Below the pieces are notes generated by a model. It was given only the letters and a program-made list of their open reading frames with translations. It had not been told where the DNA came from and did no database searches. A stretch of DNA of 64,000 nt. Origin: Sinomonas sp. ASV486. Its GTDB lineage: Bacteria; Actinomycetota; Actinomycetes; Actinomycetales; Micrococcaceae. The position numbers and the translations under genes are program-made. Of this stretch, positions 19,995 through 21,586 are shown in pieces. The stretch spans positions 62,001-126,000 of the forward strand of contig NZ_JAVFJK010000005.1 in assembly GCF_030908215.1 (NCBI RefSeq). The letters are read 5' to 3'. How positions within the stretch are numbered: position 1 is the stretch's first letter; every line of letters starts with the position of its first letter.

Positions 19995-20012
19995 AACTAC
20001 ACAGTTGTAGTT
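19995..20012. promoter_or_regulatory. Inverted-repeat operator upstream of the phoH2 locus
   Basis: AACTACA-N4-TGTAGTT, perfect 7-bp arms, in an AT-richer island. It precedes possible -10 elements TGTAAC (about 20033-20038) and TACATT (20060-20065), so a repressor bound here would touch the promoter of the small ORF and phoH2. The binding protein is unknown. Confidence 0.55.
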
Positions 20013-20067
20013 AACCGGACACTCCCCGCGATGTAACCCGCCCGTCATGTGACGCGGCGTACATTGG

Positions 20068-20098
20068 CCGCATCGGAGGCAACCCGCCTCCGGTGCGG
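20068..20098 (+). promoter_or_regulatory. Stable leader hairpin before the small ORF
   Basis: A 13-bp stem (CCGCATCGGAGGC with GCCTCCGGTGCGG, one G-U pair) closes a 5-nt loop AACCC. Its 3' end directly abuts the GGGGAGG ribosome binding site of the small ORF, so folding, or a protein bound to it, could change access to that site. Confidence 0.6.
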
Positions 20099-20109
20099 GG
20101 AGGCCGAGT

Positions 20110-20220
20110 ATGGGCGTTGCGTTGCAGCAGCTCCTGGAGGCCCGTCCCGGCCTCGCGGCCGAGCCGGACGTCAGGAGAATACCGGGGGAACCACCCGGGG
20201 GCTGGAGTCGACGTGACTAG
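20110..20220 (+). CDS. 36-codon ORF overlapping the phoH2 start; possible PhoAT-like antitoxin
   Basis: Encodes a 36-residue peptide beginning MGVALQQLLEARPGL and ending GGWSRRD. The case for a gene is a strong GGGGAGG Shine-Dalgarno 6 nt before the ATG, a stable hairpin just upstream, and a TAG stop lying 8 nt inside phoH2, so translation could be coupled. From memory, mycobacterial phoH2 is preceded by an overlapping small gene, phoAT, that acts as antitoxin; the arrangement here is the same. I see no sequence similarity I can vouch for. It may instead be only a translational-coupling leader. Confidence 0.55.
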   Translation: MGVALQQLLEARPGLAAEPDVRRIPGEPPGGWSRRD

Positions 20221-21586
20221 CAACGAGGCCGCCAACGCTGCACTGCTCGAGGAGTCCGCAGGCGCACGCGCCACCGCCGATGGCGCACGCAGGACCTATG
20301 TTCTTGACACCTCCGTGCTGCTCTCCGATCCGCGGGCACTCCTGCGCTTCGCCGAGCATGAAGTGGTGATCCCCGTCGTCGTGATCACCGAACTCGAGGG
20401 CAAGCGGAACGATCCGGAACTGGGCTACTTCGCCCGCAAGGCGCTCCGGCTGCTCGACGACCTCCGTGTCCAGCACGGGAGCCTCAACCACCCCGTGCCG
20501 CTCGAGACCGACGGCGGCGCGCAGGGCGGGACGCTGCTTGTGGAGCTCAACCACATCTCGGCGGAGGTGCTCCCCGCGGGCTTCCGCAGCGGGGACAACG
20601 ACGCCCGTATCCTGGCCGTCGCGAAGAACATGTCGAACGAGGGCCGCGCAGTGGTGCTCGTCTCGAAGGACGTCCCGATGCGCGTCAAGGCCTCGGCCAT
20701 GGGCCTCGCAGCGGACGAGTACCGCAACGAGCAGATCGTCGACTCGGGCTGGACCGGCGTCGCCGAGGTCGAGGCGGATGATCAGCAGGTCGGCGCGCTG
20801 TACGGGCACGAAGCCGTCTTCATCCCCGAGGCCGCCGAGATGCCCGTCAACACGGGCCTCGTGGTCCTCTCGAATCGCGGCTCCGCGCTCGGCCGGGTGG
20901 GTGCGGACAAGCAGGTGCGGCTCGTCAGGGGCGACCGCGAGGTGTTCGGCCTCCACGGACGCTCGGCTGAGCAGCGGCTGGCCATCGACCTCCTCATGGA
21001 CCCCGGGGTGGGGATCGTCTCGCTCGGCGGCAAGGCGGGCACCGGCAAGTCGGCGCTCGCGCTCTGCGCGGGGCTCGAGGCCGTCATGGAGCGGCGCGAG
21101 CACAAGAAGGTCGTCGTGTTCCGGCCGCTCTTCGCGGTCGGCGGGCAGGAGCTCGGCTACCTCCCCGGCACTGAGGCCGAGAAGATGAACCCGTGGGGCC
21201 AGGCGGTGTTCGACACTCTGGGGGCCCTCGTGAGCAAGGATGTCCTCGACCATGTTGTGGACGCCGGCATGCTCGAGGTGATGCCGCTGACGCACATCCG
21301 CGGGCGTTCGCTCCACGACTCCTTCGTCATCGTGGACGAGGCCCAGTCGCTCGAGAAGAATGTCCTCCTGACGGTCATGAGCCGCATGGGCCAGAACTCG
21401 AAGATCGTCCTGACGCATGACGTCGCGCAGCGGGACAACCTCCGGGTGGGCCGTCACGACGGTATCGCCGCCGTGGTCGAGACGCTCAAGGGACACCCGC
21501 TCTTCGGCCACGTGACGCTCACGCGGTCCGAGCGCTCGCCGATTGCCGCTCTCGTCACCGAACTGCTCGAGGGGGCCGAGATCTAG
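20213..21586 (+). CDS. phoH2: PhoH2-type protein: PIN domain RNase fused to PhoH ATPase
   Basis: Predicted RNA-unwinding and RNA-cleaving protein. 457 aa from a GTG with GGAG 5 nt upstream. Residues ~28-150 are a PIN domain: YVLDTSVLLSDP starts with the catalytic aspartate, ITELEGKRND gives the conserved glutamate, and SGDNDARILAVA the distal aspartates. The PhoH P-loop domain follows with Walker A GKAGTGKSA (~273-281), Walker B FVIVDEAQS (~370) and sensor-like VLTHDVAQRDN. Known PhoH2 proteins couple sequence-specific RNase and ATP-dependent helicase activity and belong to a toxin-antitoxin arrangement. The upstream 36-codon ORF and operator suggest the same here. Confidence 0.94.
   Translation: MTSNEAANAALLEESAGARATADGARRTYVLDTSVLLSDPRALLRFAEHEVVIPVVVITELEGKRNDPELGYFARKALRLLDDLRVQHGSLNHPVPLETDGGAQGGTLLVELNHISAEVLPAGFRSGDNDARILAVAKNMSNEGRAVVLVSKDVPMRVKASAMGLAADEYRNEQIVDSGWTGVAEVEADDQQVGALYGHEAVFIPEAAEMPVNTGLVVLSNRGSALGRVGADKQVRLVRGDREVFGLHGRSAEQRLAIDLLMDPGVGIVSLGGKAGTGKSALALCAGLEAVMERREHKKVVVFRPLFAVGGQELGYLPGTEAEKMNPWGQAVFDTLGALVSKDVLDHVVDAGMLEVMPLTHIRGRSLHDSFVIVDEAQSLEKNVLLTVMSRMGQNSKIVLTHDVAQRDNLRVGRHDGIAAVVETLKGHPLFGHVTLTRSERSPIAALVTELLEGAEI

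What the first reader, a model, noticed from the sequence alone, without database searches (positions are those of the whole stretch)
19995..21586. Operator-hairpin-small ORF-phoH2 locus: candidate PhoAT/PhoH2 toxin-antitoxin unit
Seen: an 18-bp inverted repeat (AACTACA-N4-TGTAGTT), a 13-bp-stem hairpin abutting a strong GGGGAGG site, a 36-codon ORF (20110-20220) ending 8 nt inside the GTG of a PIN-PhoH gene. Known: mycobacterial phoH2 is preceded by an overlapping small antitoxin gene, phoAT. Inference: the peptide is a lineage-specific antitoxin or coupling leader, with autoregulation at the inverted repeat. Such an ORF is easily missed by gene callers. An alternative is a regulatory RNA using the same hairpin.
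Basis: partly seen in the sequence, partly recalled or inferred. Interest (0 to 1): 0.72.

Follow-up and report, generated by a model that had tools for sequence, protein, structure and literature searches.

The report
Structured phoH2 leader with upstream ORF
In front of the gene for the RNA helicase/nuclease PhoH2 lies a folded messenger-RNA leader, shared by many actinomycete bacteria, with a conserved ribosome start but no conserved peptide, so the supposed small antitoxin gene looks more like a control switch.

Summary
The hairpin, strong SD, 36-codon ORF and 8-nt overlap with phoH2 are real; the upstream inverted repeat is at chance level and not conserved. What relatives conserve is a leader RNA: a -10-like box, 5' hairpin P1, CGGGGAGGCC, a start codon, a GGCC hairpin P3 and a hairpin P4 beside the phoH2 SD. 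Covariance models found it at most once per genome, always just upstream of phoH2 (31 hits in 61 family genomes; 47 hits in 128 class genomes; none in 91 genomes of other classes). The Rfam scans run gave no match. A start codon follows the SD in 120/120 leaders (control windows 4-51), but the reading frame drifts: 15 distinct Sinomonas uORFs end in a GTGA overlap (7), the window's 8-nt overlap (1), fuse with PhoH2 (6) or stop short (1); 43 Arthrobacter-type uORFs give pN/pS about 1. Best reading: a cis-acting leader in which translation of the uORF, not its peptide, controls ribosome supply to phoH2. The antitoxin idea is not supported here; the mechanism is inferred.

The parts
20060..20065 (+). 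-10-like box TACATT of the phoH2 transcript
   Evidence: TANNNT begins 31-40 nt upstream of SD1 in 105 of 120 leaders, 0-10 of 120 in eight other 10-nt windows
20068..20098 (+). Hairpin P1, predicted to sit at the 5' end of the mRNA (arms 20068-20080 and 20086-20098)
   Evidence: fold; 7 of 8 P1 pairs with changes on both sides in 43 leaders; arm-swap test p 0.0003 in family and class sets
20097..20103 (+). SD1, GGGGAGG, start of the conserved CGGGGAGGCC element
   Evidence: AGGCC invariant in 43 of 43 aligned leaders
20110..20220 (+). uORF of 36 codons; start position conserved, peptide not; ends 8 nt inside phoH2
20116..20128 (+). Small hairpin P2 just after the uORF start codon (arms placed by eye)
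   Evidence: arm-swap p 0.0003 in 56 leaders; not seen at class level, p 0.44
20131..20177 (+). Outer helix CTCCTG 20131-20136 with CAGGAG 20172-20177, enclosing P3 (placed by eye)
   Evidence: arm-swap p 0.0003-0.0007; relatives such as L002 have CTCCAG with CTGGAG at the same places
20137..20154 (+). GGCC hairpin P3 (GAGGCC 20137-20142 with GGCCTC 20149-20154) inside the uORF
   Evidence: 95% of cells paired; arm-swap p 0.0003 in the family set, 0.014 at class level
20182..20198 (+). Hairpin P4 (CCGGG 20182-20186 with CCCGG 20194-20198) directly upstream of the phoH2 SD
   Evidence: arm-swap p 0.0003, 28 leaders, a few of them with a doubtful phoH2 start
20204..20207 (+). SD2 (GGAG) of phoH2
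   Evidence: read from the sequence; CTGGAGTCGACGTG recurs in the Sinomonas rows
20213..21586 (+). phoH2: PIN-domain RNase plus PhoH RNA helicase, GTG start
   Evidence: PF13638, PF02562, NF053827
19995..20012 (.). Inverted repeat proposed as operator; checked, not counted as part of the system
   Evidence: chance-level frequency, not conserved in the genus

Best explanation
The stretch 20066-20212 is a structured, cis-acting 5' leader dedicated to phoH2 and found in many families of the class Actinomycetes. Transcription starts at or near the foot of hairpin P1 (inferred from the -10-like box). Ribosomes enter at SD1 and translate a short uORF through P2, P3 and, in most Sinomonas, P4 to the phoH2 start. 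The peptide does not matter; the passage of ribosomes does. By running over the hairpins and ending in or near the phoH2 start codon, or by fusing in frame, the uORF passes ribosomes on to phoH2. Shown by comparison: the leader, its helices, the start site, the frame drift, the link to phoH2 alone. Inferred: transcription start, coupling, premature termination, and the signal, perhaps translation stress or PhoH2's own helicase activity on its leader.
For: P1, P2, P3, outer helix and P4 arms fit their own partner better than swapped partners; five negative controls are null. Covariation of P1. At most one copy per genome at the cut-offs used in the family and class searches, each time upstream of phoH2; one strong copy in each of 15 Sinomonas genomes. 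Start codon after SD1 in 120 of 120. In Sinomonas, 14 of 15 distinct uORFs reach the phoH2 start, in any of three frames. In the presumed mycobacteria, 17 of 32 uORFs end in a 4-nt overlap and 5 in the same 8-nt overlap as the window. Short leaders in which P1-SD1 serves the phoH2 start directly. In M. tuberculosis the phoH2 5' UTR is listed as more abundant than its coding region, 4.7-fold in exponential and 11.9-fold in stationary phase (Table 8 of PMC3207917, passages seen).
Against: In Arthrobacter-type leaders the 23-codon uORF stops well before the phoH2 start, so overlap coupling is not general. The uORF frame is open through P3 in 119 of 120, but another frame is open in 114, so openness alone is weak. 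Pairing of the leader with the phoH2 SD was not supported (p 0.12-0.20), nor was the alternative hairpin (p 0.07). At class level P2 is not supported and the count of pairs changed on both sides is no better than in many shuffles or a one-column slide. 21 of 61 family genomes have phoH2 but no model hit; in the class sample 71 of the 118 genomes with phoH2 gave no hit with R2, the window's own genome among them. The first dozen uORF codons in the presumed mycobacteria look constrained. No expression data exist here for this genome. The 210-nt UTR in PMC3207917 is longer than the leader I see in presumed mycobacteria.
Confidence: 0.62

Rival explanations
1. PhoAT-type antitoxin: the uORF makes a small protein that binds and silences PhoH2.
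For: Published for mycobacteria: PhoAT is co-transcribed, binds PhoH2 and relieves its growth effect (reported in PMC4826407 and PMC7390352, passages). In the presumed mycobacteria uORF codons 2-12 show pN/pS 0.49 against 1.02 and 0.78 in the other frames (26 of 31 distinct sequences).
Against: Frame and peptide change within Sinomonas and within the mycobacteria-like genus while phoH2 stays. pN/pS 1.02 in 43 Arthrobacter-type uORFs and no GC3 bias. Some relatives have no uORF.
Confidence: 0.1
2. Riboswitch or protein-binding leader in which the uORF is incidental; PhoH2 or a small molecule binds P1-P3 and blocks SD1 or the phoH2 SD.
For: Conserved GGCC elements and P1 beyond what an SD needs; SD1 region fits its own P3 region slightly better than swapped ones (-17.7 against -17.2, p 0.005); a single target gene fits autoregulation.
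Against: A start codon follows SD1 in every leader tested; P3 is nearly invariant GGCC with no larger conserved pocket seen; no Rfam match.
Confidence: 0.2
3. The uORF start is an alternative PhoH2 start that makes a longer protein, with frameshifted copies being decayed remnants.
For: In-frame fusion in 6 of 15 Sinomonas leaders and direct P1-SD1-phoH2 forms elsewhere.
Against: 9 of 15 Sinomonas leaders, the window included, are out of frame or stopped and yet keep SD1 and the start codon; the script labelled 155 of 177 leaders as uORF, 12 as fused, 10 as direct.
Confidence: 0.06

Closest known systems
PhoAT-PhoH2 of mycobacteria (Andrews and Arcus 2015, paper not held; seen through passages of PMC7390352, PMC4826407, PMC12038028)
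   Same: Same downstream gene; a short ORF upstream that overlaps phoH2; presumed mycobacterial leaders carry the uORF over the same GGCC hairpin.
   Different: Here the peptide is not conserved, the frame drifts, and the conserved object is RNA plus a start site. That the published phoAT is this uORF is inferred.
uORF-controlled leaders such as toiL-topAI of E. coli (PMC12121999, abstract and outline seen), where a uORF senses ribosome-targeting antibiotics
   Same: Short uORF, leader secondary structure, proposed ribosome-dependent control of a toxin-like gene.
   Different: Different gene, structure and lineage; nothing here shows the signal or stalling.
uORFs in M. tuberculosis riboswitch leaders (PMC11260477, PMC12810186; search listings only)
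   Same: Leader RNA with a uORF before the controlled gene.
   Different: Those have a known riboswitch (B12, M-box); none was found here.

Membership tests
PhoAT-PhoH2 toxin-antitoxin module | PIN-PhoH toxin gene | tested here: met
   PF13638 + PF02562, NF053827 above cut-off
PhoAT-PhoH2 toxin-antitoxin module | Short upstream ORF overlapping phoH2 | tested here: met
   20110-20220 overlaps GTG 20213 by 8 nt
PhoAT-PhoH2 toxin-antitoxin module | Antitoxin peptide kept as a protein | tested here: not met
   frame drift in 15 Sinomonas leaders, pN/pS 1.02 in 43 Arthrobacter-type uORFs
PhoAT-PhoH2 toxin-antitoxin module | Operator-based autoregulation at the inverted repeat | tested here: not met
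   repeat at chance frequency and not conserved
PhoAT-PhoH2 toxin-antitoxin module | Peptide binds PhoH2 and relieves toxicity | not testable with these tools
   needs a bench test
c-di-AMP riboswitch RF00379 or another Rfam family | Match to the covariance model | tested here: not met
   window 19000-22000: one match, a miRNA family far below its gathering score; none in 10 leader loci of other families at E up to 2
uORF-controlled leader | Conserved uORF start with ribosome-binding site | tested here: met
   120 of 120 leaders
uORF-controlled leader | Conserved helices overlapping the uORF | tested here: met
   P2, P3, outer helix in the family set
uORF-controlled leader | Mutually exclusive structures at the SD of the controlled gene | tested here: inconclusive
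   alternative hairpin p 0.07; pairing with SD2 p 0.12-0.20
uORF-controlled leader | Dependence of the gene on uORF translation | not testable with these tools
   needs reporter assays

The most novel reading that the evidence does not exclude
The phoH2 leader is a new class-wide regulatory RNA family of Actinomycetes, and the mycobacterial 'antitoxin gene' phoAT is its uORF: PhoH2 is then not half of a toxin-antitoxin pair but a helicase/nuclease set by a ribosome-sensing, peptide-independent leader, possibly feeding back through PhoH2's own unwinding of that leader.
Probability: 0.35. Interest if true: 0.8.

Novelty: new member of a known kind. Interest (0 to 1): 0.6.

Why it matters
phoH2 was found in 118 of 128 class genomes examined, and I know of no account of how it is controlled outside the toxin-antitoxin reading. 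A leader tied to this one gene across many families gives a direct handle on that question, would add an RNA family that the Rfam scans run here did not show, and offers an alternative to the toxin-antitoxin reading of phoAT-phoH2 that can be settled with simple start-codon and frameshift mutants.

Tried and rejected
Antitoxin peptide: rejected as main reading after frame, pN/pS and GC3 tests. Operator at the inverted repeat: rejected. RF00379 and other Rfam families: no match. Intrinsic terminator or classical sigma-70 promoter: none found by pattern scan of 19880-20320. A two-state switch with a second hairpin GGCC-N4-GGCC: 97.7-100% of cells pair, but those pairs vary on one side only, and the swap test gave p 0.07; left open. 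Pairing of the leader with the phoH2 SD: not supported. Link to WblC: the PhoH-like SCO2532 of PMC7157823 (passages) is named there an ortholog of E. coli YbeZ, so it is probably the other PhoH paralog; not used. PADLOC gave only weak matches, best E 0.0009 to AbiO over 39 residues. First start-codon count with a too strict P3 pattern gave 56 of 57, the miss being a wrong site in L017; replaced. First alignment across the class mixed loop registers; replaced after dropping 8 of 31 rows. On the 23 rows kept, the covariation score beats all 500 shuffles, but the number of pairs changed on both sides (6) is reached by 69 of 500 shuffles and exceeded by slides of one column (8 and 7), and P1 pairs in only 75% of cells, partly because P1 is aligned out of register.

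Rows dropped before counts: one search used 144 of 217 leaders in which SD1 and a P3-like pattern were found (120 after removing identical cores; many are related, so they are not independent); the 73 left out include mycobacteria-like, short and divergent leaders. One search used 56 of 93 leaders after removing similar ones. One search used 28 of 50 in which a phoH2 start was found by pattern (50 being the 56 less six), and some of those starts, such as L016, L019 and L089, look wrong. One search used 26 of 31 distinct sequences, chosen by a pattern at their 5' end, which favours conservation. Of the 10 leaders that labels 'direct', only L188, L196, L212 and L228 are clear to me; L114, L147, L160 and L179 look mis-assigned.

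Full report
What is there. Between an isoprenyl transferase gene (19098-19883) and phoH2 (GTG 20213 to 21586; PIN_4 + PhoH, NF053827) there are 329 bases.

The inverted repeat. Repeats of this kind are no more frequent than in simulated sequence (12 in the window against 12, 6 and 12), and only the window's own leader has it in perfect form among 13 Sinomonas leaders printed; by eye four others have degenerate arms. I do not count it as an operator.

The leader is conserved as RNA. Aligned phoH2 leaders, nearly all of Micrococcaceae (43 sequences), share a 5' hairpin (P1), the element CGG(G)AGGCC, and a GGCC-rich hairpin (P3). In P1, 7 of 8 pairs show changes on both sides; for P1 and P3 together no shuffle of 500 reached the observed covariation score; P3 pairs in 95% of cells. 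A swap test, in which each 5' arm is paired with the 3' arm of another species, supports P1 (-13.6 native, -9.0 swapped kcal/mol), P2 just after the start codon, P3, an outer helix around P3 (56 leaders, p at or below 0.0007) and P4 next to the phoH2 SD (28 leaders, p 0.0003). The SD1 region also fits its own P3 region slightly better than swapped ones (p 0.005), so SD1 may be masked at times. Five negative controls gave p 0.13 to 0.94. In leaders of other families P1 (p 0.0003) and P3 (p 0.014) hold, P2 does not (p 0.44; 26 leaders); column counts on 23 leaders are mixed. These tests do not correct for shared descent. A second pairing of the GGCC segments (p 0.07) and pairing with the phoH2 SD (p 0.12-0.20) are not supported. 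A TANNNT box begins 31-40 nt before SD1 in 105 of 120 leaders, against 0 to 10 in eight other windows, which would place the transcript start at P1.

It belongs to phoH2 alone, as far as the searches see. A covariance model from the 43 leaders finds one strong match in each of 15 Sinomonas genomes (E 2.5e-10 or better; the next match anywhere is E 0.19). In 61 Micrococcaceae genomes it finds one match in 31 (E up to 0.05); compared by hand, all 31 end at most 313 nt upstream of the phoH2 match. Of the 30 without, 9 have no phoH2 match at E 1e-100 and 21 have one. A second model from 23 leaders of other families finds one match in 47 of 128 class genomes (E up to 0.02); compared by hand, 47 of 47 lie just upstream of phoH2. 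27 of those 47 genomes gave no sequence to the model, though many are close kin of ones that did; one genome that did (G204) was missed. 118 of the 128 have phoH2, so 71 with phoH2 had no hit, the window's own genome, which this model does not fit, among them. In 100 genomes of the phylum it hits 4, all of the class; none of the 91 from other classes is hit, but whether those have phoH2 was not tested. All these searches score only the best candidates of a loose first look, so weak second copies could be missed. Rfam 15 gave no match for window 19000-22000 beyond a sub-threshold miRNA family and none for ten class-level leader loci. Literature searches for phoH with riboswitch, uORF, leader peptide, RNA motif, attenuation, structured RNA or covariance listed no paper that mentions phoH in the rows shown (17 of 17, 25 of 263); supplementary files could not be read.

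The start site is kept, the peptide is not. In 120 distinct leaders, chosen without regard to start codons, a start codon lies 4-12 nt after SD1 in 120, against 4 to 51 in ten shifted windows. From that start the frame is open through P3 in 119 of 120, but the two other frames are open in 91 and 114, so openness says little. In 15 distinct Sinomonas leaders the uORF ends in a 4-nt GTGA overlap with phoH2 in 7, in the window's 8-nt overlap in 1, runs in frame into PhoH2 in 6 and stops 29 nt short in 1. 43 Arthrobacter-type uORFs of 23 codons give pN/pS 1.02 in frame and 1.16 and 0.94 in the other frames; for codons 2-10 alone 0.79 against 1.52 and 0.72. GC3 from start to P3 is 0.62 in frame and 0.67 and 0.61 out of frame (113 leaders); from general knowledge, genes of such genomes have a far higher GC3 (not tested here). 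Some relatives have no uORF: P1 and the SD lead straight to the phoH2 start, most clearly L188, L196, L212, L228.

The mycobacterial link. The first dozen codons are similar (MASDMLCCPGG and the like, pN/pS 0.49 against 1.02 and 0.78; a result that favours some role for that part of the peptide), then the frame drifts: 17 of 32 end in a 4-nt overlap (GTGA, in L249 TTGA), 11 are in the second frame (5 with the window's 8-nt overlap), 4 in the phoH2 frame. This is where phoAT is reported: a short co-transcribed gene overlapping phoH2, whose product binds PhoH2 and relieves its growth effect (PMC7390352, PMC4826407, PMC12038028, passages seen; the original paper is not held, so identity of the two ORFs is inferred). 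In M. tuberculosis the phoH2 5' UTR is more abundant than the coding region by 4.7-fold and 11.9-fold in exponential and stationary phase (PMC3207917, Table 8, passages), as expected if many transcripts end or are cut in the leader; its listed length of 210 nt does not match the shorter leader I see.

Mechanism. The common denominator is a ribosome entry site near the 5' end, helices in the path of the ribosome, and, in Sinomonas and the presumed mycobacteria, delivery of the ribosome to the phoH2 start by whatever frame is at hand. I take this as peptide-independent control by uORF translation. No terminator-like site was found, so early termination, if any, would be Rho-dependent. The closest worked example by mechanism is toiL-topAI (PMC12121999, abstract). 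What signal is sensed is unknown; translation stress and autoregulation by PhoH2 are the candidates I would test first.

Noticed in passing
L188, L196, L212, L228 (and possibly L174, L176, L190): Relatives with a short-circuited leader: P1 and the SD stand directly before the phoH2 start, with no uORF or P3.
   Followed up: partly
L213-L216, L233-L262: Presumed mycobacterial phoH2 leaders start with an ATG about 8 nt after a TAGCGT box, i.e. the uORF looks leaderless, unlike the SD-led uORF elsewhere in the class.
   Followed up: partly
G078, G102, G123, G140, G155 (genus g14): phoH2 matches begin only at residue 184-207 of the query in these genomes; the PIN part may be diverged or broken there. 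G169 of the same genus matches over residues 9-455.
   Followed up: no
window 20093-21586: The phoH2 frame is open upstream of GTG 20213 to an in-frame GTG at 20093 (497 codons), so gene callers may extend PhoH2 through the leader.
   Followed up: no
L187, L193, L199, L217, L218, L229: In one frame the P3 region reads as a Pro/Ala/Gly/Arg-rich stretch (GPAPG and the like) in several families; it may slow ribosomes or may just mirror the hairpin.
   Followed up: no
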